A DNA stretch of 27,235 bases from IMG/VR virus record IMGVR_UViG_3300009431_000115, positions 1 through 27,235 of that record. One strand, written 5' to 3'. The notes under the pieces were generated by a model. The model made no database searches and was not told the origin of the DNA. It saw only the letters and a list, made by a program, of their open reading frames with translations. The position numbers and the translations under genes are program-made. Shown here piece after piece: positions 11,301 through 23,555 of this stretch. Source of the DNA: a virus. How positions within the stretch are numbered: the stretch's first letter is position 1; every line of letters begins with the position of its first letter.

Positions 11301-12237
11301 GGACCTTTCTCAATCCTTCCTCTTCGTCGAAGACCGGGTGGAGACCGGGGGAGCCCTCGGGGACATGATCGTGTCGGTCCCTTTGGAGACCGGGGTCCGG
11401 GGAGCCGTCCCGAGCTCGAAGCTCCTCGAGTTCCTCGGGAAGAGTACGGACGAGGAGCTCGGAATCGAATCGGATGGGAAAGAGCTCCTCCTGTCCGGGA
11501 AGAGGGTGAAGGTCGGGATTCCGATCTCAGACCTGGACTCAGCCTCCTGGCGGGAACACGACTGGCCGGAGAAGGGGTGGGAGAAGGTTCCGGACGGTTT
11601 CCTGGAGTCTGTCCGTATTGTATCGGAGTCTGCTGGGGATAATCTCTCGCAACCTATCTTCACGATGGTACACGTCACCCAGCAGTATGTCGAAGCCTCC
11701 GACAACTATCTCTTCTCCCGGGTCACTTTGCCGACAGCTCTCTCCGGAGATGGGTTTCTGCTTCCGGCAGCTCGGGTCCGGTTCCTGGAGTCCCTGGAGC
11801 CGGCCGAGTACGCGGTTTCCCCGTCCTGGGTGTATTTCCGATCCGCAGAGGGAGGCCATATCGCTTTCCGGACGTTTGACGGGAAGTATATCGACCCGGA
11901 CCGAATCTTCCCGGAGGGGGAGGAGATTGCCTTCCCGAGCGGAATCGGGGATGCCCTGGACCGGTCTGCGGTCTTCGTCGACCCGGTGGCTGGGAGAAGC
12001 TACTGTAAAATCAAGATCGAGAAGAACAAGGCCGAGATCGAAGCCCGGGGAGTGGAGGGATGGATCCGGGAGAAGGTCCGGACCCGGTATGAGGGGAAGG
12101 CTCTCTCTCTGCTGGTCCGGCCGCGGCCGTTCCGGGAGGCTCTCCAGTTGACGAATCGGGCCATTGTAGGGGATTCCTCCCTGATGTTGAAGGGGGACCG
12201 GGTGATGTATATCGTGTGGTTGCCGGCCGATGAGTAA
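11224..12237 (+). CDS. DnaN-type DNA polymerase sliding clamp
   Basis: A 337-residue protein of the bacterial beta-clamp type, which encircles DNA and tethers the polymerase. The start (MAKVNRKILLETLKRGAAGL), the domain-1 pattern VRGAVPSSKLLEFLGK and the closing strand SSLMLKGDRVMYIVWLP match the order in DnaN proteins, with three repeated domains of about 110 residues. It is slightly shorter than cellular DnaN. The chosen ATG follows GAGAGGAGGAAAACC; the frame is open upstream but without a better site. It overlaps the end of the acyltransferase gene and, by eight bases, the next gene. It should be loaded by the clamp-loader ATPase at 15118. Confidence 0.8.
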   Translation: MAKVNRKILLETLKRGAAGLKGKEIEDLSQSFLFVEDRVETGGALGDMIVSVPLETGVRGAVPSSKLLEFLGKSTDEELGIESDGKELLLSGKRVKVGIPISDLDSASWREHDWPEKGWEKVPDGFLESVRIVSESAGDNLSQPIFTMVHVTQQYVEASDNYLFSRVTLPTALSGDGFLLPAARVRFLESLEPAEYAVSPSWVYFRSAEGGHIAFRTFDGKYIDPDRIFPEGEEIAFPSGIGDALDRSAVFVDPVAGRSYCKIKIEKNKAEIEARGVEGWIREKVRTRYEGKALSLLVRPRPFREALQLTNRAIVGDSSLMLKGDRVMYIVWLPADE

Positions 12238-13441
12238 AGGCGGGTTTTTCGATACGGATGAGCTCCCGGCCGGCGGGACCGGGTGCGGGTATACGTGCTT
12301 ACTCCGGGACGGGTGCGAGTCTCCGGCCATGCCTCCTTCCGGGGAAGGGGAGAAGGACGTCCTGTTCGTGGCCGAGGCGCCCGGAGCAGACGAGGACCGG
12401 AAGAACACTCAGCTGGTCGGGAAGATCGGCCGGGAGTTCCGGGAGATCCTGGAGGAGGAGTTGGACTTCGACCTCGACCGGGAGGCTCGGAAGACCAACG
12501 GGGTCCGGTGCCGACCTCCGAAGAACCGGACACCTACTCCGGAGGAGATAGCCGCGTGCCGATCCCATATCTGGGAGGAGATCCGGGAGCACCGTCCCCG
12601 GGTTATCATACCTCTGGGAGGGGTGGCCCTGGAGTCCCTGATCGGAGACCGGTGGAAGAAGGACCTCGGAGGGATCTCCCGGTGGAGGGGGTTCCGGATC
12701 CCGGATCACCGGGCCGGAGCCTGGATCTGCCCTACCTGGCACCCGAGCTACGTGGCCAGGTCCCGGAACGACAAGAAGGGATCCGCGGTGGAGCCTCTGT
12801 TCATCGATGACCTCCGGCAAGCCCTCCGGAACCGGGAGCAATCCCTTCCCTCCCCGGTCCTGGAGTCCGACGTCCGGGTGGAGAAGGACCCGGACCGGGC
12901 AGCTCGAGCTCTCCGCCGGCTTCCGGACGGGATCTATGCGGTGGACTTCGAGACCACCGGGCTCCGTCCTCACAACGACGGGCACCGGATCGTGTGCGCA
13001 GCCGTCTCCAACGGCAGGGAGACCCTCTCCTTCCCGGTGGAGGGGAGAGCCGAGAGGTTCCTGGCTCAGTTCATGGGGGATGAGGGGAAGAAGAAGGTGG
13101 CCCAGCATATCCAATTCGAGGATATGTGGGCCGGAGTCCGGCTCGGGACCCGGGTCCGGGGATGGGTATGGGACACGATGTTGGCCGGACATATCCTGGA
13201 TAACCGTCCTGGGGTGACCGGGCTGAAGTTTCAGGCCTTCGTCCGGCTCGGGCTCGTAGGATACGATGAGGACGTGGGTCCCTTCCTCCAGGCGAAGGGA
13301 AAGAGCGCAAACGATTTTAACCGTATCGACAAGGCAGATCCGGATAAAGTCCTCCGGTACTGTGGGATGGATGCCCTGGCCGAGTTCCGGTTATTCGAGC
13401 AGCAGGAGGTAGAGCTCCGTGCTAACGACATCCCGATTTGA
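12230..13441 (+). CDS. Family-4 uracil-DNA glycosylase fused to 3'-5' exonuclease
   Basis: A 403-residue fusion. Residues 15-200 are a family-4 (iron-sulfur) uracil-DNA glycosylase: motif AEAPGADED (near 49), VRCRPPKNRTPTPEE, and WHPSYVARS (near 170). Cysteines 94 and 110 have the C-x15-C spacing of family 4; N-terminal cysteines 19, 23 and 29 would complete the cluster. Residues 230-400 are a DEDDy proofreading exonuclease of the Pol I type: DFETT (D239, E241), QHIQFED (D298), and YCGMD (Y377, D381). The polymerase domain is a separate gene downstream. The fused protein could check for uracil and misinsertions during synthesis. The start overlaps the clamp gene. Confidence 0.88.
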   Translation: MSKGGFFDTDELPAGGTGCGYTCLLRDGCESPAMPPSGEGEKDVLFVAEAPGADEDRKNTQLVGKIGREFREILEEELDFDLDREARKTNGVRCRPPKNRTPTPEEIAACRSHIWEEIREHRPRVIIPLGGVALESLIGDRWKKDLGGISRWRGFRIPDHRAGAWICPTWHPSYVARSRNDKKGSAVEPLFIDDLRQALRNREQSLPSPVLESDVRVEKDPDRAARALRRLPDGIYAVDFETTGLRPHNDGHRIVCAAVSNGRETLSFPVEGRAERFLAQFMGDEGKKKVAQHIQFEDMWAGVRLGTRVRGWVWDTMLAGHILDNRPGVTGLKFQAFVRLGLVGYDEDVGPFLQAKGKSANDFNRIDKADPDKVLRYCGMDALAEFRLFEQQEVELRANDIPI

Positions 13442-13763
13442 TCAGGCTCTGTATGAGGATCTATATCCTTCGGAATACCAACCCGGGGAGTATACCGGAC
13501 CCTTGCCGGATGATCCGCGGGTCCCGAGACCGGATGCTCTGTTCATCGTCGTTTTTCATCACGACGTCGACAACGTGAAGAAGGGGGGAGTCCTCTTGGG
13601 TCCGACGGCTATCCTTTGGGACGTCCTCGAATACGTCCCGGAGATTGGGGACGCAGGGTTCTGGATTGTGGAGCTCGTAGGGAAGACCCGGACCCGGATC
13701 TTCCGGTGGCACCCGGGGAGGGAGCTCTGGAAGAGAGTGGCCAGGGGGAGGGCAGCTGAATGA
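13419..13763 (+). CDS. Hypothetical protein between exonuclease and polymerase genes
   Basis: A 114-residue protein starting at a GTG eight bases after AGGAGGT and overlapping the exonuclease gene by 23 bases. It has a beta-rich centre (ALFIVVFHHD, AGFWIVELVG) and a basic C-terminus. No family recognised. Its location between the two halves of the split polymerase, and its tight coupling (ATGA at 13760-13763) to the polymerase gene, suggest a replication accessory, but nothing in the sequence shows how. Confidence 0.7.
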   Translation: MLTTSRFDQALYEDLYPSEYQPGEYTGPLPDDPRVPRPDALFIVVFHHDVDNVKKGGVLLGPTAILWDVLEYVPEIGDAGFWIVELVGKTRTRIFRWHPGRELWKRVARGRAAE

Positions 13764-15121
13764 TGAGGACGGCCCACGCAAATCAATTGTTGCTCCAAGG
13801 CGCCCGGGCACTGGCCGTGGCAGAACAGACCGGGATCCGTATTGACCTGGACTATTGCTCCCGGACAAAGAACCATCTGTCCCGGAGGATCGACCGGCTG
13901 GAGGAGACCTTCCTGGAGGAGACGGACCTCGGGAGGGAGTGGAGATATTGTTTCCGGAAGATCAAAACCGGATCCGATTCCCAGCTGCTGGAGGTCGTCC
14001 AGAAGATGGGGGCAACGACGGGGAAGCAGACGGCCAAGGGGAAGGAGTCCGTCAGTGCCGAGGCTCTCCAGGAGTCCGGGGTCGACGGTTTCCGGGAGTT
14101 GATCCGTCTCCGGAAGTGGAGGAAGGCACGGTCCAACTACCTGGTAGCAATAGAGAGGGAAGTCGTCTCTCACTCGGACGGGTTATGGTATCTCCATCCC
14201 TTCTTCCACCTGAATACGGTCCGGACATACAGGTCCTCCTCCTCCAACCCGAATTTCCAGAACATCCCTATGCGGGATCCGGAGATCAAGAAATTCATCC
14301 GGAGGGCTTTCGTCCCACGGCCGGGTCGGGTCCTCCTTGAGGCAGACTTCAAGGCCCTGGAGGTCGGAATCGCGGCTTGTTACCACCGGGACCCCACCAT
14401 GCTGGAGTATCTTCGAACGGATCCTGGAGCCATGCACTCGGACACGGCTCGGAAGCTCTTCCTGCTCGGGACAAAGTATGGGGTCACGAAGGAACTTCGG
14501 TATGTAGCCAAGAACCGGTTCGTGTTCCCGGAGTTCTATGGTTCCTGGTTCCGGGAATGTGCTCAGAATATATGGGCCGTCCGGAACGATTTCTTGGTGG
14601 GAGAGAAGACTCTCAGCCAGCACCTCCGGGAGGAGGGTCTCCGGTCCTATGCTCGGTTTGAGGAGCACGTGGAGGAGATCGAGAGGGTCCTCTGGGACAA
14701 GAGGTTCCCGGTCTACCGGGACTGGAAGGAACGGTGGTGGAAGGAATACCTCCGGCGGGGGTGGTTCGATACCCTGACGGGGTTCCGGTGTTCCGGGGAG
14801 TTGGAGAGGAACAAGGTCATAAACTACCCGGTCCAGGGCTCGGCCTTCCATTGTCTCTTGAAGACCCTGATCTGGGTCGTCCCGATGCTAGAGACGGAGA
14901 AGTGGAAGGAGGTCCGGCTCGTGGGCCAGGTCCACGATTCTGCTCTCTTCGATCTTCCGGAGGAGCTCGTGGAGGGGTGGTTCGGAGTCCTGGTCCAGAT
15001 CGTTCGCCGGCGCCTCCCCAAGGCGTGGCCCTGGATCGTGGTACCGATGGGGCTGGACGCAGAGAGGTCAGAGGTCGACGGGTCCTGGTACGAAATGAAA
15101 GAAATGGAGGAGGCCGCATGA
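13760..15121 (+). CDS. Family A DNA polymerase, polymerase domain only
   Basis: A 453-residue family A polymerase without a 5' nuclease or exonuclease domain. The thumb/template region includes TYRSSSSNPNFQNIP (156-170). Motif A has D196 in LLEADFKALE; motif B is RYVAKNRFVFPEFYG (R247, K251, Y260); motif C is VHD at 391-393. The usual QGTAAD motif is QGSAFH here. In this phage type the K-to-Y distance in motif B is nine, one more than in E. coli Pol I. The exonuclease lies on the glycosylase fusion two genes upstream, so the holoenzyme is split. Two ATGs, 13760 and 13763, precede the same sequence; the first overlaps the preceding stop. Confidence 0.92.
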   Translation: MMRTAHANQLLLQGARALAVAEQTGIRIDLDYCSRTKNHLSRRIDRLEETFLEETDLGREWRYCFRKIKTGSDSQLLEVVQKMGATTGKQTAKGKESVSAEALQESGVDGFRELIRLRKWRKARSNYLVAIEREVVSHSDGLWYLHPFFHLNTVRTYRSSSSNPNFQNIPMRDPEIKKFIRRAFVPRPGRVLLEADFKALEVGIAACYHRDPTMLEYLRTDPGAMHSDTARKLFLLGTKYGVTKELRYVAKNRFVFPEFYGSWFRECAQNIWAVRNDFLVGEKTLSQHLREEGLRSYARFEEHVEEIERVLWDKRFPVYRDWKERWWKEYLRRGWFDTLTGFRCSGELERNKVINYPVQGSAFHCLLKTLIWVVPMLETEKWKEVRLVGQVHDSALFDLPEELVEGWFGVLVQIVRRRLPKAWPWIVVPMGLDAERSEVDGSWYEMKEMEEAA

Positions 15122-16950
15122 GTCTAGCAAACAAGTATCGACCGGAAAGTCTGGATCAGGTTATCGGGAACGAATCCGTGGTGGATTCTATTGAATCCCT
15201 CCTTTCCGGGGACGATCCTCCCCGGGCCTGGTTGTTCCACGGTCCTCACGGGTGCGTTAAGGGAGATACTAAGATTTACGATCCGGTGAGAAAGGAGGAA
15301 AAACCAATAAAACAGTTGTGGGAAGAAAAACTACCTTTCCACGTTATTTCCTTTGATTCTGTTTCCGGAAAGATGGTAGTTTCGGAAGCTCTGCCGCCGG
15401 TCCGGTATTCTCCATCCCGTTTGTTTCAAGTAGAAACTTCTCAATCAGCTTTCTTCGTGACCGACGAACACCGGTTCCTTTCTCTGACTGGGGAATACCT
15501 TTCATTGAAGGAATTGATCGAGAACGGATTTTCCGAAGTCCCTCTTCTGTCCACTTCGGTTTCTTCCCCAGAAGCTCTACACCAAGATGGTCTCCATTAT
15601 TGTGGAAAACCAAAAGGTTTTCCGGCCGATTGTCGTCCTTTTTTCCGTTTAGGTGATGGACAACTTCCTTCTTTTTTAAGCGGCGTTTTAAGAGCTGTTC
15701 CATTATTAATCGGTGTTCTGGTACATATTTTCCGTCAATTCGGATCTGAACATATCCGTCCGCATCCGTTCTTTTCCCTCCTTTCCAAAAATTATTCTTT
15801 TCTCCCATCTGAGCGCCTCCGTTTCGAATATCCGTTTTTGTCCGTCGTAGGGAACGACGAACCGTTCTTGGATCGACGTGAAAAAATGTTGCTATTTCTT
15901 GCATTGTCCATCCTCGTTTATATCTCAGAGAGATATTCAGATCATTCTTCGGAGATATTTTCCTCATCTTTATTGACCAACCTTCTTTCCTTTGATAGAT
16001 TCCCTTCGGCATCTTCTTTATCCTCCATGGTTAGTGATTCATCCTTATTCATGCCTACTAGAATAAAGAAAATAAGGGAAAAAGGCAAGGAAGAATATTT
16101 TGATTTTCATGTTCCCTATTTCAATAATTATTGGGCAGGAGGTTTATTTCATCACAATTGCGGCAAAACAACCCTGGCCCGGATCATCGCGCGGGAGATG
16201 GGCTGCACGCACGAGATGGACCTGCAGGAGGTGGACAGCGCGCAGTACACGGGCGTGGACAACGTGCGGGACATACGGATGTCCGCCAATCTCATGCCGA
16301 TGGGCGGAAAGATGCGCGCATGGATCATGGACGAGTGCCACCGCATGAGCCCACAGGCGCAGGATGCCCTGCTCAAGCTCCTGGAGGATACTCCTAAACG
16401 GTCTATGTTCCTGCTGGCGACGACGGACCCGGGGAAGCTCCTCCCGACGGTCCGGAGCCGGTGCGTCCAGTTCCAGGTGGAGAGCCCGGAGGAGGACGTC
16501 CTGGCCAAGCATCTCCGGGACGTCTCCCGGAGGGAGAAGGTCCGGCTCTCCGGGGAGCTCGCAGAGCAGATAGCCCGGGATTCCCTCGGTTCCGTCCGGG
16601 ACGCAATGATGATCCTGGAGCAGGTTATCCGATTGCCGGAGGAGAAGAGGGAGGAGGCTGCTCGGAGGATGGCTGAGAAGACGGTCCAGACCGTCGAGCT
16701 GTGTCGAGCCCTGATGTCCCCGAAGACGAAATGGGCATCCGTCGCCAAGATCCTCGAGGGATTGAAAAACGAGGATGCGGAAGGGGTCCGGCGGGCCGTC
16801 ATCGGCTACTGTGCCGCAATCCTCCGGAAACGGGACAACCCGCAAGCCTTCCTGGTGGGGGATACGATGTTGAGCGCCGGGATTATAGGGAACGGGTGGC
16901 CGGGAATGACTTTGATTTGTTACCGGGCCGTGATGGAAGTTTCCGTTTAA
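15118..16950 (+). CDS. Clamp-loader AAA+ ATPase (DnaX/RfcS-like) containing an intein
   Basis: A 610-residue precursor; removal of the 302-residue intein leaves 308 residues, the usual size of a phage or archaeal small clamp-loader subunit. The N-terminus has the RFC-type start LANKYRPESLDQVIG. Walker A would read GPHG-CGKTT after splicing. Walker B is WIMDECHRM; the RSRC motif follows TDPGKLLPTV. Its job is to open the sliding clamp and place it on DNA. The ATG at 15118 overlaps the polymerase stop (ATGA). Without splicing the ATP site is destroyed, so the intein must splice for activity. Codon use in 16159-16390 differs from the rest. Confidence 0.93.
   Translation: MSLANKYRPESLDQVIGNESVVDSIESLLSGDDPPRAWLFHGPHGCVKGDTKIYDPVRKEEKPIKQLWEEKLPFHVISFDSVSGKMVVSEALPPVRYSPSRLFQVETSQSAFFVTDEHRFLSLTGEYLSLKELIENGFSEVPLLSTSVSSPEALHQDGLHYCGKPKGFPADCRPFFRLGDGQLPSFLSGVLRAVPLLIGVLVHIFRQFGSEHIRPHPFFSLLSKNYSFLPSERLRFEYPFLSVVGNDEPFLDRREKMLLFLALSILVYISERYSDHSSEIFSSSLLTNLLSFDRFPSASSLSSMVSDSSLFMPTRIKKIREKGKEEYFDFHVPYFNNYWAGGLFHHNCGKTTLARIIAREMGCTHEMDLQEVDSAQYTGVDNVRDIRMSANLMPMGGKMRAWIMDECHRMSPQAQDALLKLLEDTPKRSMFLLATTDPGKLLPTVRSRCVQFQVESPEEDVLAKHLRDVSRREKVRLSGELAEQIARDSLGSVRDAMMILEQVIRLPEEKREEAARRMAEKTVQTVELCRALMSPKTKWASVAKILEGLKNEDAEGVRRAVIGYCAAILRKRDNPQAFLVGDTMLSAGIIGNGWPGMTLICYRAVMEVSV
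15344..16012 (-). CDS. HNH homing endonuclease, antisense inside intein
   Basis: A 222-residue protein on the minus strand, wholly within the intein. It starts MPKGIYQRKE, as in many phage HNH proteins. A helix-turn-helix follows (residues 33-60: GWTMQEIATFFHVDPRTVRR) and then an HNH_3-type core: GYVQIRIDGKYVPEHR (86-101), EVVHHLNGKKDDNRPENL (116-133) and a final His near 142. The likely metal/catalytic residues are H119/H120, N128 and H142. GGAGGA on the minus strand (16021-16026) lies eight bases before the ATG, so it can be translated by itself. It would cut intein-free clamp-loader alleles and so spread the intein. The last 70 residues lie opposite the N-terminal splicing domain. Confidence 0.88.
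   Translation of the reverse strand: MPKGIYQRKEGWSIKMRKISPKNDLNISLRYKRGWTMQEIATFFHVDPRTVRRSLRRTKTDIRNGGAQMGEKNNFWKGGKRTDADGYVQIRIDGKYVPEHRLIMEQLLKRRLKKKEVVHHLNGKKDDNRPENLLVFHNNGDHLGVELLGKKPKWTEEGLRKIRSRSIPSMKGIPQSEKGTGVRRSRRKLIEKFLLETNGMENTGPAAELPKLPSFRKQNQRK
16021..16026 (-). promoter_or_regulatory. Ribosome binding site of the antisense HNH gene
   Basis: TCCTCC on the + strand reads GGAGGA on the minus strand, eight bases before the HNH ATG. Farther upstream on the minus strand, TTGAAA (16119-16124) followed after 17-19 bases by an AAATATT-like stretch could serve as a promoter, but this is weak. Confidence 0.7.
16159..16390 (+). other. Foreign-codon tract next to the intein (likely co-conversion tract)
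   Basis: From the +1 Cys of the extein to about 16390 the codon choices change: GGC, GCG, CGC, CTG, CAG, AGC and ACG replace the GGG, GCC, CGG, CTC and TCC used elsewhere, and GCGC words become frequent (for example around 16189, 16239 and 16316). The protein sequence stays a normal clamp loader, including Walker B. Phage-typical codons return after the CCTAAACGG at 16393. No such change is seen in the 135 bases before the intein. This fits one-sided co-conversion of donor DNA during homing repair. The right border is approximate. Confidence 0.7.
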
Positions 16951-19042: not shown

Positions 19043-20084
19043 GCGGGGAGACTGGGAATGGAGGGGGAAAGCCTTCCATTCCGGGTCGACCATGCTCAAT
19101 CTGGCCTGTACGGACAACGAGGATGGAGCCTACCCACCGGGAGCTATCATCAACCTGGTAGGGGACAAGAGTGCCGGGAAGTCCCTCCTGGCCCTGTCCG
19201 GGCTGGCTGAGACAGCAATTGACTCGGACAACAAAAAGACCCGGTTGATCTACGACGATGCGGAGACGGCCAACAACTTCAATATGAAAAAGCTATTCGG
19301 GAAGATCCTGGCCAAGAGGATCGAGGAGCCGGACCCGAGTGAGACCATTGAGGACTATACGGACCGGGTTCACGACTTGATAGACGGGGACGTCCCGTTC
19401 ATCCACGTCCTGGATTCCTTCGACATGATCGGATCGGAAGCAGACATTTCAAAATACCTCCAGGCCAAGGAAGCCCGGGACAAGAGGAGGGAGGGGAAGG
19501 AGGTCAAGTCCAAAGGTTCCTACGGGACCGGCCGAGCCCGGGGGTCCGCGGAGTTCTTCCGGATGAAGAAGAAGGCAATCAAGACGACGGACTCCCTCCT
19601 GATGGTAATTTCTCAGGTCCGGGAGAACCTGGATGCCTCCGGACCCTGGTCCCCGAAGCACTACCGGGCCGGCGGGAAGGCCCTGGACCATAATGCCTTC
19701 CTGGTTATCTGGCTGGCAGTTATCAAGCAAATTGTCCGTCAGGTAAACAATAGAAAGAGACCCGTGGGACAGTGGGTGGAGGCGAAAGTCGACAAAAACA
19801 AAATAAATGGGAAATATCGGACCGTCCGGTTCCCAGTGTACTACGACTATGGGGTGGACGATATCGGCAGCATTGTCCATTTCCTCGTTGACGAGAAGTG
19901 GTGGAAGAAGAACAAAGCCGGTCTGTATGTGGCCGAGGAGCTCAAGCTCGAGGGGGACAAGGAGGAGCTGATCCGGGCAGTGGAGGAGGAGGGGAAGGAG
20001 AAGGAGCTGAGGATGGCTGCGGGGAGAGCGTGGAGGGCAATCGAATCCGATTTCAAAATGGACCGGAAGAGGAGGTTCGGATGA
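18981..20084 (+). CDS. UvsX/RecA-like recombinase
   Basis: A 367-residue RecA-fold strand-exchange ATPase. Walker A is GDKSAGKS (61-68) after the strand AIINLV; LIYDDAET (near 90) carries the acidic residues that follow; Walker B is IHVLDSFDMIG (141-151); LLMVISQVREN (near 207) contains the Gln that senses ATP. It would form filaments on single-stranded DNA with UvsY- and gp32-like partners encoded just upstream. It lacks the long C-terminal domain of RecA, as UvsX does. The ATG at 18981 follows AAGGTGG; an ATG at 18990 is an alternative. Confidence 0.85.
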   Translation: MGRMKAKADTSPTRDRPGSDERGDWEWRGKAFHSGSTMLNLACTDNEDGAYPPGAIINLVGDKSAGKSLLALSGLAETAIDSDNKKTRLIYDDAETANNFNMKKLFGKILAKRIEEPDPSETIEDYTDRVHDLIDGDVPFIHVLDSFDMIGSEADISKYLQAKEARDKRREGKEVKSKGSYGTGRARGSAEFFRMKKKAIKTTDSLLMVISQVRENLDASGPWSPKHYRAGGKALDHNAFLVIWLAVIKQIVRQVNNRKRPVGQWVEAKVDKNKINGKYRTVRFPVYYDYGVDDIGSIVHFLVDEKWWKKNKAGLYVAEELKLEGDKEELIRAVEEEGKEKELRMAAGRAWRAIESDFKMDRKRRFG

Positions 20085-20554
20085 GGTTTTTCATAGGGAT
20101 CGACCCGGGGAAGGCCGGCGGGATCGGGGCCCTCCAAGAGAACGGCCGAGCCGTGGGAGCCTGGGATATGCCCGCAGACGAGGTAGGATTCCTGGACTTG
20201 AAGGATGAGATTGAAATGAATCTTCCGATAGTTTATGAAGTGATGGTGATTTTGGAAAAGGTCCATTCCATGCCGAAGCAGGGGGTCAAGAGCGTCTTCT
20301 CCTTCGGTCAAAACTTCGGGATGTGCCGGCTTTGGGCTACTCTCTGGGGCGGTTCCGTCATCTACGTCACGCCCCATAAATGGATGACCTCGGTGTTCGA
20401 TTCCGACAAGGGGGGAGGGACTACCAAGGACCGTTCCCTGCTGTTTGCCCGACGGCGGTGGCAAAACGTAGACCTCCGGTTGAAGAAACACCACGACCAC
20501 GGCCGGTCCGATGCCCTTTGTATAGCCGAGTGGGGGAGGAGAAACCACCGATGA
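20081..20554 (+). CDS. RuvC-like Holliday junction resolvase
   Basis: A 157-residue RNase H-fold nuclease. It starts MRFFIGIDPGKAGGIG (D8), has VMVILEKVHSMP (E59) and then the typical GQNFG segment, and ends with HHDHGRSDALCIAEWG (D139 or D141 region and D144). These four acidic positions form the RuvC metal site. It would cut four-way junctions made by the recombinase encoded immediately upstream; genes overlap by ATGA at both ends (20081-20084 and 20551-20554). Length is close to that of RuvC. Confidence 0.85.
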   Translation: MRFFIGIDPGKAGGIGALQENGRAVGAWDMPADEVGFLDLKDEIEMNLPIVYEVMVILEKVHSMPKQGVKSVFSFGQNFGMCRLWATLWGGSVIYVTPHKWMTSVFDSDKGGGTTKDRSLLFARRRWQNVDLRLKKHHDHGRSDALCIAEWGRRNHR

Positions 20555-21612
20555 TCGAAGAGATCCGGCTCAAGAATTTCCAAAGCCACCGGGATTCCGT
20601 CCTCCGGCTCCACCCGGGGGTCAACGTCATTGTGGGTCCGACGGACTGCGGGAAGACGGCCGTCCTCCGGGCTCTCAATTGGGTGGTGAATAACCGGCCG
20701 ATGGGGACCCGGTTCCGGTCCCGGTGGGGAGGGGATACGGAAGTCACGGTGGACCTCTCCGGGGGGACCTACGTCACCCGACGTCGGACAAAAAAGGATA
20801 ACCTTTATGAGATCCTCCCCGGGAACGGGAGGACGGAGGTCTTGAAGGCTCTGAAGTCCGAGGTTCCGGAGGAGATCCTGACCGAGTTGAATATGGACGA
20901 GATCAACGTCCAGCGCCAGCACGATCAGCCTTTCCTCCTCTCGGCCGGCTCCGCAGAGGTCGCACGGGTCCTCAATCGGATAGCCAACCTGGAGGAGATC
21001 GAGACGGCTCAGAAGACGGCCAACTCCCGGGTCCGGAACCTCATGGCCCGGGAGACCGCGGCCGAGGAGGAGAAGAGGGTCCTGGCCGGCCGGTTGGAGG
21101 AGTTTGACGACCTCGAGGATCAGGAGAGCCTCCTTCACTCTATCGAGGAGGCCCAGAAGAACATTTACCAGGATCAGGAGTGGTACGACGAAGTCAAGGA
21201 GACCGTCCTCCAGGCTCGGTTGGAGAAGAAGAAGGTCGACGAGATCGAGACCTTCTTGAAGGACGTGGGACCCTGGACCGCGGCTTCCCTCCGGAACTAT
21301 GAGGCATTGAAAAAGTCCTCCGGGGAGCTCGAGGATCTCCGGGAGCTGGTTCGACGTGTTTGGGATCTCCAGGAGTTTGCGGAGGGGCATGAATGGCTGG
21401 AGGAGGCCGAGCCGAAGGTCCTCGACGGCCAGGTCCGGCTCCGGGGGGTCCGGAAGAAGGCAGAGGACCGGGCTCGGCTGGCCGCGGAGATCGACAAGGC
21501 CGAGCAGTTCCGGAAGAAGGTCGACGAGATGGGCCGGAAGGGGGAGGAAGCCGAGAAGGAGTTCCGGAAGGTTATGCCGGACGAGTGCCCCTTGTGCGGG
21601 AGGAGCGGGTGA
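20551..21612 (+). CDS. Rad50/SbcC N-terminal half ending at the zinc hook
   Basis: A 353-residue protein equal to the first half of Rad50/SbcC/gp46. It begins with IRLKNFQSHRD and Walker A GPTDCGKTA (29-37), continues through a Q-loop region (NVQRQHDQPFLL), and then a coiled coil of about 170 residues. It ends at the zinc-hook motif CPLC (C346, C349), four residues before the stop. The second coil and the ATPase C-lobe are absent and are found in genes at 22684 and 22938. The stop overlaps the nuclease start (TGATG). This is not an accidental truncation: all pieces are intact and in order around the nuclease gene. Confidence 0.85.
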   Translation: MIEEIRLKNFQSHRDSVLRLHPGVNVIVGPTDCGKTAVLRALNWVVNNRPMGTRFRSRWGGDTEVTVDLSGGTYVTRRRTKKDNLYEILPGNGRTEVLKALKSEVPEEILTELNMDEINVQRQHDQPFLLSAGSAEVARVLNRIANLEEIETAQKTANSRVRNLMARETAAEEEKRVLAGRLEEFDDLEDQESLLHSIEEAQKNIYQDQEWYDEVKETVLQARLEKKKVDEIETFLKDVGPWTAASLRNYEALKKSSGELEDLRELVRRVWDLQEFAEGHEWLEEAEPKVLDGQVRLRGVRKKAEDRARLAAEIDKAEQFRKKVDEMGRKGEEAEKEFRKVMPDECPLCGRSG

Positions 21613-22622
21613 TGCCGAGAATGAGCTCTCCGAAAAAGTCAAGGAAGAATATTTCCGGTGAAAATTCTTCCCTCCCGGTCGCAGCCGTGATCTGCTCGGA
21701 CATCCATCTCCGGGATGACGTCCCGAAGTGTCGGACGGACGAGGACTATTTCCAGGTTCAATTGAACAAGGTCGGGATCATATCCTCCCTGGCTATGAGC
21801 TACGACTGCCCTGTCCTTTGCGCGGGGGACGTCTTCGATTTCTGGAAGCCCTCTCCCTGGCTCCTGAACCAGGCTATCCAGAAGATGAAGGAGGCCGTCT
21901 GGGTGGCCATCCCGGGCCAGCACGACCTCCCTCGGCATAACCTCTCCCTGATTGAGAAGTCCGGGATCTTCAACCTGGATCTGGCTATGCGGAATTTCCA
22001 CCTGATAACGAATCCCTTTCAGACGTATAGGATGGCCAGGAAGGAGGGGGAGATCGACGTGTGGGGCTTCCCCTGGGGGATGGATTTGACGATGGAAAAG
22101 GGTGGAAATCTTCATCCTAGTGAGGAAACCGATGGACGGCTCCGAGTTGCCGTCGTTCATAAACTCTGCTGGAAGGGAAAGCCTCCTTTTCCGGGAGCTC
22201 CGGAGGACGGAAACGAGGAGGTTTTCTTCCGGACCCTCCCCTGGGCAGACCTGATCGTGACCGGGGACAACCACCGGGATTTCGTCTCCCACCGGGACGG
22301 GAGGATCCTCGTCAACCCGGGGGCAATGATGCGGATGAAGGCAGACGAAGGGGACCGGGAGCCGGCCGTCTACCTGTGGCGACCCGGAGCCTTGGAGGAA
22401 ATTGAGAAGGTCCGGATCCCGGTCGATCCGGAAGCCGTCTCCCGGGAGCACATCGAGAGGAAGAAGGACCGGGACGACCGGATTGATGCCTTTGTGGCCC
22501 GGTTAAACCAGGAGTATGACGTGGAGGTCGACTTCCGGGAAAACTTGAAACGTCATTTCGAGACGAACCGGATCCCGAAGCTGATCCGGGAGACGGTTAT
22601 GGACTGCGTGGAAAATCCATAG
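21612..22622 (+). CDS. Mre11/SbcD/gp47-like nuclease
   Basis: A 336-residue calcineurin-type metallophosphoesterase. Motifs in order: CSDIH (D30, H32), AGDVFDF (D73), PGQHD (H104, D105), VVHK (H183) and TGDNH (H221). These give the two-metal site of Mre11-type nucleases, which trim DNA ends with Rad50 for recombination. The first 20 residues are basic and probably disordered. The gene sits between the N- and C-terminal Rad50 genes, as nuclease and ATPase are paired in T4 (gp46/gp47), but here it separates the parts of Rad50. Confidence 0.87.
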   Translation: MPRMSSPKKSRKNISGENSSLPVAAVICSDIHLRDDVPKCRTDEDYFQVQLNKVGIISSLAMSYDCPVLCAGDVFDFWKPSPWLLNQAIQKMKEAVWVAIPGQHDLPRHNLSLIEKSGIFNLDLAMRNFHLITNPFQTYRMARKEGEIDVWGFPWGMDLTMEKGGNLHPSEETDGRLRVAVVHKLCWKGKPPFPGAPEDGNEEVFFRTLPWADLIVTGDNHRDFVSHRDGRILVNPGAMMRMKADEGDREPAVYLWRPGALEEIEKVRIPVDPEAVSREHIERKKDRDDRIDAFVARLNQEYDVEVDFRENLKRHFETNRIPKLIRETVMDCVENP

Positions 22623-22683
22623 GAGGGGATCATGGTGGAGAGGGTTGCCGGGGTGTTGCTTCCGGAAAGAGAGGAGAGGATTG

Positions 22684-22941
22684 ATGGCCAGAGACGAAGT
22701 GTTGGAAAGACGGCTCCTCCGGATGAAGAACGAGATCGAGGAGCTCCGGACGGCTCGGGATCAGGCCCAAGGCCGGCTCGACGCCTCGATGGACCGGCTG
22801 AAAAATGACTTCGGTTGTTCTTCGGTAGAGGAGGCCGAAAAGCAGCTGGAGAAGAAGGAAAAGCAGCTGGTCAAGGAAAGAGCTACTCTCGAGAAGATGG
22901 TGACCGAGCTCGAAGGGAAGTTCGGTTGGGAGGGGGAATGA
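22684..22941 (+). CDS. Small coiled-coil protein between Mre11 and Rad50-C genes
   Basis: An 85-residue protein that is almost all coiled coil, with heptad-like leucines and many Lys/Glu (VLERRLLRMKNEIEEL, and EAEKQLEKKEKQLVKE). A TTG at 22645 could extend it by 13 residues, but AGAGGAGAGG lies just before the ATG at 22684. It overlaps the C-terminal Rad50 gene by ATGA. Its position and composition suggest it supplies, or binds, the second coil of the split Rad50. A scaffolding role elsewhere is also possible. Confidence 0.65.
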   Translation: MARDEVLERRLLRMKNEIEELRTARDQAQGRLDASMDRLKNDFGCSSVEEAEKQLEKKEKQLVKERATLEKMVTELEGKFGWEGE

Positions 22942-23555
22942 TCTCCGAGCGGATCCGATCCTTGAAGTCCCGGGTTTCTGCCCGTCGAGGAGCCTTCCAG
23001 GAGGTCCTCCGGTCCGCGGTCCAGACGGAGGGGGAGCTGAAGGCCATCCGTCGGGACCTCTCCCGGATGGAGAGAGCCCGGTCCATTATCCAGGTCGTGG
23101 CCCAGGAGACCCAGGGACAGCTCGAGTACAGGATCAACTCCCTGGTGACTATGGCTCTGTCGATAGTCTTTGACGACCCTTACGAGCTCTCTCTCCGGTT
23201 CGAGGAAAGGAGGGGAAAGACGGAGGCCGATTTGACCTTCCTCCGGGGGGACGAAGAGATGGACCCGATGGACGAGAGCGGGGGAGGAGCCGTGGACGTC
23301 GCGGCTTTTGCTCTCCGGGTGGCTATGTGGAAGATGCGCCGGCCGTCGAGCCGGAACACGTTTGCTTTGGACGAGCCCTTCCGGTTTGTCTCTCGGAATC
23401 TCCAGCCCCAGGCCAGCCTCATGCTCCGGGAGATCAGTCAGAAAGTCGGGCTCCAGGTGGTTATGGTCTCTCACTCCGAGGACCTCATCGAGAGCGCAGA
23501 CCGAGTCTTCCGGGTGAGCCTACGAAAGGGGGTCAGTGTAGTAGAGGAGAGCTGA
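22938..23555 (+). CDS. Rad50/SbcC C-terminal half
   Basis: A 205-residue protein equal to the C-lobe of the Rad50/SbcC ATPase. A coiled stretch (1-75) leads into the ABC signature ESGGGAVDVAAFALRVAMW (113-131), Walker B TFALDEPF (141-148) with the catalytic Glu, and the switch His in MVSHSEDL (H179). It has no zinc hook. With the N-terminal half at 20551 it would form the two-lobed nucleotide sandwich. Start overlaps the coiled-coil gene; stop overlaps the next start (TGATG). Confidence 0.85.
   Translation: MISERIRSLKSRVSARRGAFQEVLRSAVQTEGELKAIRRDLSRMERARSIIQVVAQETQGQLEYRINSLVTMALSIVFDDPYELSLRFEERRGKTEADLTFLRGDEEMDPMDESGGGAVDVAAFALRVAMWKMRRPSSRNTFALDEPFRFVSRNLQPQASLMLREISQKVGLQVVMVSHSEDLIESADRVFRVSLRKGVSVVEES

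What the first reader, a model, noticed from the sequence alone, without database searches (positions are those of the whole stretch)
20551..23555. Rad50 divided into separate genes around Mre11
The N-lobe gene ends four residues after the zinc-hook CPLC, the C-lobe is a separate gene with signature, Walker B and switch His, and a small coiled-coil gene sits before it. The Mre11 gene lies between. Each junction is an overlap, so the parts are made from one message. A split exactly at the hook means the second arm has no hook half; the assembly would need another way to join arms, perhaps through the 85-residue coil protein.
Basis: partly seen in the sequence, partly recalled or inferred. Interest (0 to 1): 0.65.

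Follow-up and report, generated by a model that had tools for sequence, protein, structure and literature searches.

The report
Phage Rad50 split at its hook
Many phages and prophages, including this one, encode the DNA-repair motor Rad50 not as one chain but as three genes (the front half ending in its zinc hook, a small coil, and the back half) next to the nuclease Mre11, so the usual covalent link between the motor's two arms is missing and something else must hold the arms together.

Summary
Window 20551-23555 carries a Rad50 N-half ending CPLC-GRSG-stop, an Mre11-like nuclease, an 85-residue coil protein (K) and a Rad50 C-half. One detail is wrong: Mre11-to-K is a 61-nt gap, not an overlap. 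It is not an assembly artefact. Of 199 distinct relatives of the C-half, 196 are free-standing; the N-half ends at most 40 residues after a CxxC in 198 of 206 distinct proteins; K lies just upstream of the C-half nearly everywhere. The split forms were one clade on a preliminary tree. About 60 of 398 sampled Bacillota genomes carry the free C-half, but only four distinct phages among 50,697 phage records. I found no published description in the open papers searched. Most likely the four proteins form one Mre11-Rad50 complex, with K as the post-hook piece of the arm: T4 gp46 has 287 residues before and 269 after its hook, against 290-524 (N) and a median of 284 (K+C), and one phage fuses Mre11, N-half, hook and a K-like segment. 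Assembly and function are untested.

The parts
20551..21612 (+). Rad50 N-half (353 aa): Walker A/Q-loop lobe, about 195-residue helical arm, terminal zinc-hook motif CPLC followed by GRSG-stop
   Evidence: Translation; Rad50 HMM PRK03918 1-357 of 878, E 2.9e-18; PDB Rad50 chains; AlphaFold model mean pLDDT 89, head then helices 147-184, 188-279, 281-341; Foldseek best hit 1f2u_C Rad50; phrog_16465
21612..22622 (+). Mre11/SbcD-like phosphoesterase (336 aa)
   Evidence: profile of 12 family members hits solved Mre11 and SbcD chains, E 6.5e-11; motif residues conserved in 157-162 of 164 family members
22684..22941 (+). K: 85-aa helix-loop-helix coil protein, proposed post-hook segment of the second arm
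   Evidence: AlphaFold helices 2-43 and 48-80, mean pLDDT 95.4; homologues upstream of the C-half in 168 loci by HMM and by eye in several more
22938..23555 (+). Rad50 C-half (205 aa): about 63-residue arm, signature, Walker B, switch His
   Evidence: solved Rad50 C-terminal chains 3qkr_B/1ii8_B/1f2t_B, E about 2e-6; invariant GGG, DE, H; phrog_15167 1.7e-26
20081..20554 (+). Context: RuvC-like Holliday-junction resolvase (likely start ATG 20081 within ORF 19898-20554), overlaps the N-half by 4 nt
   Evidence: phrog_1770, E 5.6e-27, match from residue 62 of ORF 19898-20554

Best explanation
This is a phage Mre11-Rad50 (SbcCD, T4 gp46/gp47-like) complex whose Rad50 is made as three chains. N-half and C-half fold together into the ABC ATPase head, as separate P. 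furiosus Rad50 N and C chains do in crystals. The N-half carries a long helical arm tipped by a complete one-CXXC hook, so two N-halves can still pair through zinc. The C-half keeps only the base of its arm. K is the missing post-hook piece of that arm; it packs on the N-arm and replaces the covalent link between the arms by a non-covalent one. Mre11 binds the head, and the complex trims or recombines phage DNA ends with the neighbouring RecA/UvsX-like, SSB-like and RuvC-like proteins. Shown here: sequence identity of the parts, conservation of the split and of the terminal hook, near-universal K, and an apparent single origin on a preliminary tree. Inferred: assembly, K's position, and function.
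For: Parts. Conservation: 196 of 199 distinct C-halves free-standing; N-half ends at most 40 residues after CxxC in 198 of 206, median 10 residues; K upstream of C in all 168 loci where both were found, 122 of 168 within 50 nt of C or overlapping. Single origin: one clade against four outgroups. Length arithmetic: T4 gp46 287 residues before and 269 after the hook; split set N before hook 290-524, K+C median 284. One phage (L145) has Mre11 + N-half + CPLC + 138 further residues containing a K-like segment in one ORF, with the C-half next to it. Three single-chain Mre11-head-head fusions without arm or hook have no detectable K. Separate chains can make the head: PDB 1f2t/1ii8 A and B chains match N- and C-half respectively. 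Neighbours are recombination genes.
Against: No interaction, zinc binding, ATPase or nuclease activity was tested. The N-arm varies (148-349 residues) while K (about 80) and the aligned C-arm (about 63) stay constant, so simple full-length antiparallel pairing cannot hold in the longer forms. The K match inside L145 is suggestive only: 17.2 bits, second of 202 coil segments, with one unrelated N-arm at 18.3; canonical Rad50/SbcC show no specific K match after the hook. K may be a hairpin rather than a linear arm piece; model coordinates were not readable. The clade node (0.79) and the nesting of armless fusions (0.16-0.78) have weak support and the outgroup is small.
Confidence: 0.68

Rival explanations
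1. N- and C-half form the ATPase head with Mre11, but K is not part of the arm: it is a separate accessory (clamp, loader, DNA- or host-factor-binding protein) kept next to the C-half.
For: K has no specific match in canonical Rad50 arms; arm-length variation is not matched by K; in window-type phages K often carries a loop Cys (54 of 89), less often elsewhere (9 of 77), which hints at a role of its own.
Against: Near-universal position before the C-half, K+C length close to the post-hook half of gp46, K-like segment fused behind the hook in L145, K not found with armless fusions.
Confidence: 0.24
2. Sequencing or assembly errors, or decayed gene fragments, only look like separate genes.
For: Single window from a metagenome virus record.
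Against: Same split in about 200 distinct loci, including phage records from cultured hosts and plasmids; stop nearly always just after the hook; motifs intact; other genes inserted cleanly between parts.
Confidence: 0.02
3. The pieces are rejoined (frameshift, intein or trans-splicing) into one Rad50 chain.
For: An intein-like domain lies in the clamp-loader gene of the same window; L145 shows a fused Mre11-N-K chain.
Against: Pieces are out of order (Mre11 between N and K), often separated by other genes, even far apart (Magritte), and carry no intein match in Pfam.
Confidence: 0.02
4. The complex serves mainly anti-host or inter-phage conflict rather than phage recombination.
For: N-half resembles Lamassu LmuB distantly (3.5e-14); T4 gp46/47 also degrades host DNA (PMC5105663).
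Against: No PADLOC match for the Mre11; neighbours are recombination and replication genes.
Confidence: 0.1

Closest known systems
Mre11-Rad50 / SbcCD (cellular)
   Same: ABC head motifs split between N- and C-lobe, helical arm, CXXC hook, Mre11 phosphoesterase partner
   Different: Rad50 is one chain in the canonical family; here N-half with hook, K and C-half are separate genes
T4 gp46/gp47
   Same: Phage MR complex with a short-armed Rad50 (560 aa, hook at 288); lengths before and after the hook similar to N and K+C
   Different: gp46 is intact; sequence similarity is weak
Bacillus phage vB_BboS-125 (NC_048735) gp32/gp34/gp35
   Same: Same split: N-half ending CPLC plus 9 residues, 78-aa K, 211-aa C-half
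   Different: AP2/HNH gene between N and K; Mre11-like ORF lies downstream and is not annotated; annotated only as exonuclease, hypothetical protein and ATPase, not as a split Rad50
PHROG families 16465, 15167, 18563
   Same: Hold N-halves, C-halves and some K proteins
   Different: Listed as unconnected 'exonuclease', 'ATPase' and unknown
Lamassu LmuB
   Same: Best PADLOC match of the N-half (residues 2-351 on profile 5-339 of 611)
   Different: Single chain, defence operon; no Mre11-like partner as far as I know

Membership tests
Mre11-Rad50 (SbcCD) | N-lobe with Walker A and Q-loop | tested here: met
   G34, K35, Q123 invariant in 69 N-halves; Rad50 HMM E 2.9e-18
Mre11-Rad50 (SbcCD) | C-lobe with signature, Walker B, switch His | tested here: met
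   Invariant GGG, D145E146, H179; solved Rad50 C-chains E about 2e-6
Mre11-Rad50 (SbcCD) | Both lobes on one polypeptide joined through the arms | tested here: not met
   196 of 199 free-standing C-halves
Mre11-Rad50 (SbcCD) | CXXC hook motif at the arm tip | tested here: met
   Sequence only: 198 of 206 N-halves; CPxC in 183 of 194
Mre11-Rad50 (SbcCD) | Zinc-mediated hook dimer | not testable with these tools
   Needs protein
Mre11-Rad50 (SbcCD) | Antiparallel pairing of the two arms | tested here: inconclusive
   Arm pieces predicted helical; pairing could not be modelled; lengths do not co-vary
Mre11-Rad50 (SbcCD) | Mre11 partner with phosphoesterase motifs | tested here: met
   window shows Q for N in GNHD and D for H in GHxH
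Mre11-Rad50 (SbcCD) | Rad50-binding helices at the Mre11 C-terminus | not tested
   C-terminal residues look helical by eye only
T4 gp46 type | Intact single-chain short-armed Rad50 | tested here: not met
Lamassu | LmuA effector beside an intact LmuB | tested here: not met
   The LmuB-like lobe is not intact; the four module proteins scanned give no LmuA match; genes outside the module were not scanned with PADLOC

The most novel reading that the evidence does not exclude
A Rad50 whose arm is a non-covalent assembly, with the hook on a free C-terminus and a detachable second arm built from K and the C-half, has been stable over a large phage clade. The ring could then open at the arm itself rather than at head or hook, and an unbroken Rad50 chain is not needed for an MR machine.
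Probability: 0.35. Interest if true: 0.8.

Novelty: new variant of a known kind. Interest (0 to 1): 0.6.

Why it matters
How movement in the Rad50 head is passed along the arms to the hook, and whether the arms must be covalently continuous, are hard to test in a one-chain Rad50. Here nature has cut the chain at the hook, so each arm piece can be removed, exchanged or labelled alone. The relatives also include single-chain Mre11-Rad50 fusions with no arm or hook, which offer a minimal comparison. The annotation of several 'exonuclease', 'ATPase' and unknown phage families can be corrected together.

Tried and rejected
Viral scan with the Mre11 protein alone found nothing, and with the L145 fusion only itself. 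K HMM against canonical Rad50/SbcC arms: no specific signal. Foldseek with the K model: uninformative. tblastn with K in the phage records: no match. PHROG hits of individual K proteins to 'exonuclease' and scaffold families judged to be coil look-alikes. Lamassu membership considered and not supported. Homing endonucleases as the cause of the split: HNH or GIY-YIG genes sit in junctions of a few loci but methylase and ParB genes do too, so the cause is not shown. No open paper found on a split Rad50 or SbcC; the papers on BboS-125 and on jumbo phages do not mention it in the passages searched. Subscription papers were not searched.

Full report
What is there. Window 20551-23555 encodes, on the plus strand and tightly packed, a Rad50 N-half (353 aa), an Mre11-like phosphoesterase (336 aa), an 85-aa helical protein (K) and a Rad50 C-half (205 aa). 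The N-half ends CPLC-GRSG-stop. N/Mre11 overlap by one base and K/C by four; Mre11/K are 61 nt apart, so the claim that every junction overlaps is not exact. The module follows SSB-like, RecA/UvsX-like and RuvC-like genes, a phage recombination context. The window is a virus record of 27,235 bases, possibly a fragment.

Identity of the parts. N-half: Rad50 HMM E 2.9e-18 over nearly its whole length, solved Rad50 chains, an AlphaFold model with mean pLDDT 89 showing the head and a nearly unbroken helical arm from residue 147 to 341 before the hook, and Foldseek top hits Rad50. C-half: solved Rad50 C-terminal chains at about 2e-6. Mre11: the family profile hits Mre11 and SbcD structures, best E 6.5e-11. 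K: two helices, 2-43 and 48-80, pLDDT 95, no informative structural match.

Not an artefact, and widespread. Scans of IMG/VR with two C-half alignments and one N-half alignment found 271, 68 and 100 relatives. After classifying ORFs with HMMs and removing duplicates there are 199 distinct C-half loci; in 196 the C-half is its own gene. Related sequences are counted, so these are not independent events. The commonest orders are N-Mre11-K-C (88) and N-K-C-Mre11 (47). Of 206 distinct N-half ORFs with a readable end, 198 stop at most 40 residues (median 10) after a CxxC; of 194 hook-bearing ones 183 have CPxC, against 0 of 490 other ORFs. K was found by HMM in 168 loci, always upstream of C, and by eye in several loci the HMM missed. 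In a sample of 398 Bacillota genomes, 75 matched the C-half family, about 62 of them as a free-standing gene at E below 1e-20 (my count). Among 50,697 phage records only BboS-125, Magritte, Tunturi_5 and one uncultured jumbo phage matched. In the jumbo phage a gene that looks like a sliding clamp (read by eye) sits between K and C, and in Magritte N and C are far apart, which argues against any need for one message.

Origin. On a FastTree of C-halves all family members fall together against four outgroups, in a window-type half (about 100) and a Bacillus/Clostridia-type half (about 97); support at that node is moderate (0.79). Seven loci fuse Mre11 to the N-half (L145, L168, L293, L300, L301, L308, L314); the C-half stays separate. 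Three Bacillota genomes carry a 684-700-aa single chain of Mre11, N-head and C-head with almost no arm, no hook and no detectable K; they sit within the split group, with weak support, so they may be secondary re-fusions.

What K is. Three observations suggest the post-hook arm piece. First, lengths: T4 gp46 has 287 residues before and 269 after its hook; the split set has 290-524 before, and K+C with a median of 284. Second, L145 continues its chain 138 residues past the hook into a K-like segment, and no separate K was found there; this match is only suggestive, since one of 201 unrelated coil segments scored higher. Third, K is next to C nearly everywhere and was not found where arms are missing. 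Against this, N-arms range from 148 to 349 residues while K and the aligned C-arm are nearly constant, so the longer N-arms must fold or bend in some other way.

The hook argument. Canonical Rad50 has one CXXC per chain at the apex, and two chains coordinate zinc together (PMC7260605, PMC6969161). The split family keeps it, at the C-terminus of the N-half; no K and no C-arm has one. What needs explaining is how the second arm is attached.

Mechanism. Best supported: N and C assemble the ABC head in trans, as P. furiosus Rad50 N and C chains do in crystals (entries 1f2t, 1ii8); Mre11 binds there; K and the C-arm pack on the N-arm; hooks pair through zinc. The head and hook steps follow from the family; the packing of K is inference; function in phage recombination is inferred from neighbours and from T4 gp46/47 (PMC5105663).

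Novelty. I found no open paper describing a split Rad50 or SbcC; public families list the parts unconnected. I rate it a new variant of a known kind.

Noticed in passing
L240:2652-4754 (-), L241:2764-4818 (+), L242:2083-4170 (-): Single-chain 684-700-aa fusions of Mre11, Rad50 N-head and C-head with virtually no arm and no hook in Bacillota genomes; no K detected nearby.
   Followed up: partly
window 21612-22622 and 164 family Mre11 proteins: Coupled metal-ligand change: Gln for Asn in GNHD occurs only together with Asp for His in GHxH (Q/D 49, N/D 24, N/H 83, Q/H 0).
   Followed up: partly
window 22816-22818 (K residue Cys45): A Cys in the K loop (FGC motif) is present in 54 of 89 window-type K proteins but 9 of 77 others.
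   Followed up: partly
window 12230-15121: Family A DNA polymerase also seems divided: UDG plus 3'-5' exonuclease (12230-13441), a 114-aa ORF (13419-13763) and a polymerase domain (13760-15121) as separate ORFs.
   Followed up: no
window 14734-16950: Clamp-loader ORF with an intein-like insert (PF14890, residues 212-475, below the Pfam cut-off).
   Followed up: no
L145:5059-7374; L168:1570-4383; L293, L300, L301, L308, L314: Mre11 fused to the Rad50 N-half in one ORF, with the C-half still separate.
   Followed up: partly
L001:7407-7979; L065:4377-4910; L085:4978-5757; L120:7177-7791; L303:4814-5323: HNH/AP2 or GIY-YIG endonuclease genes sit in junctions between the module's parts.
   Followed up: partly
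L001:9247-10227 (NC_048735, 22423-23403): Unannotated Mre11-like ORF of 326 aa in Bacillus phage vB_BboS-125, downstream of its C-half.
   Followed up: yes
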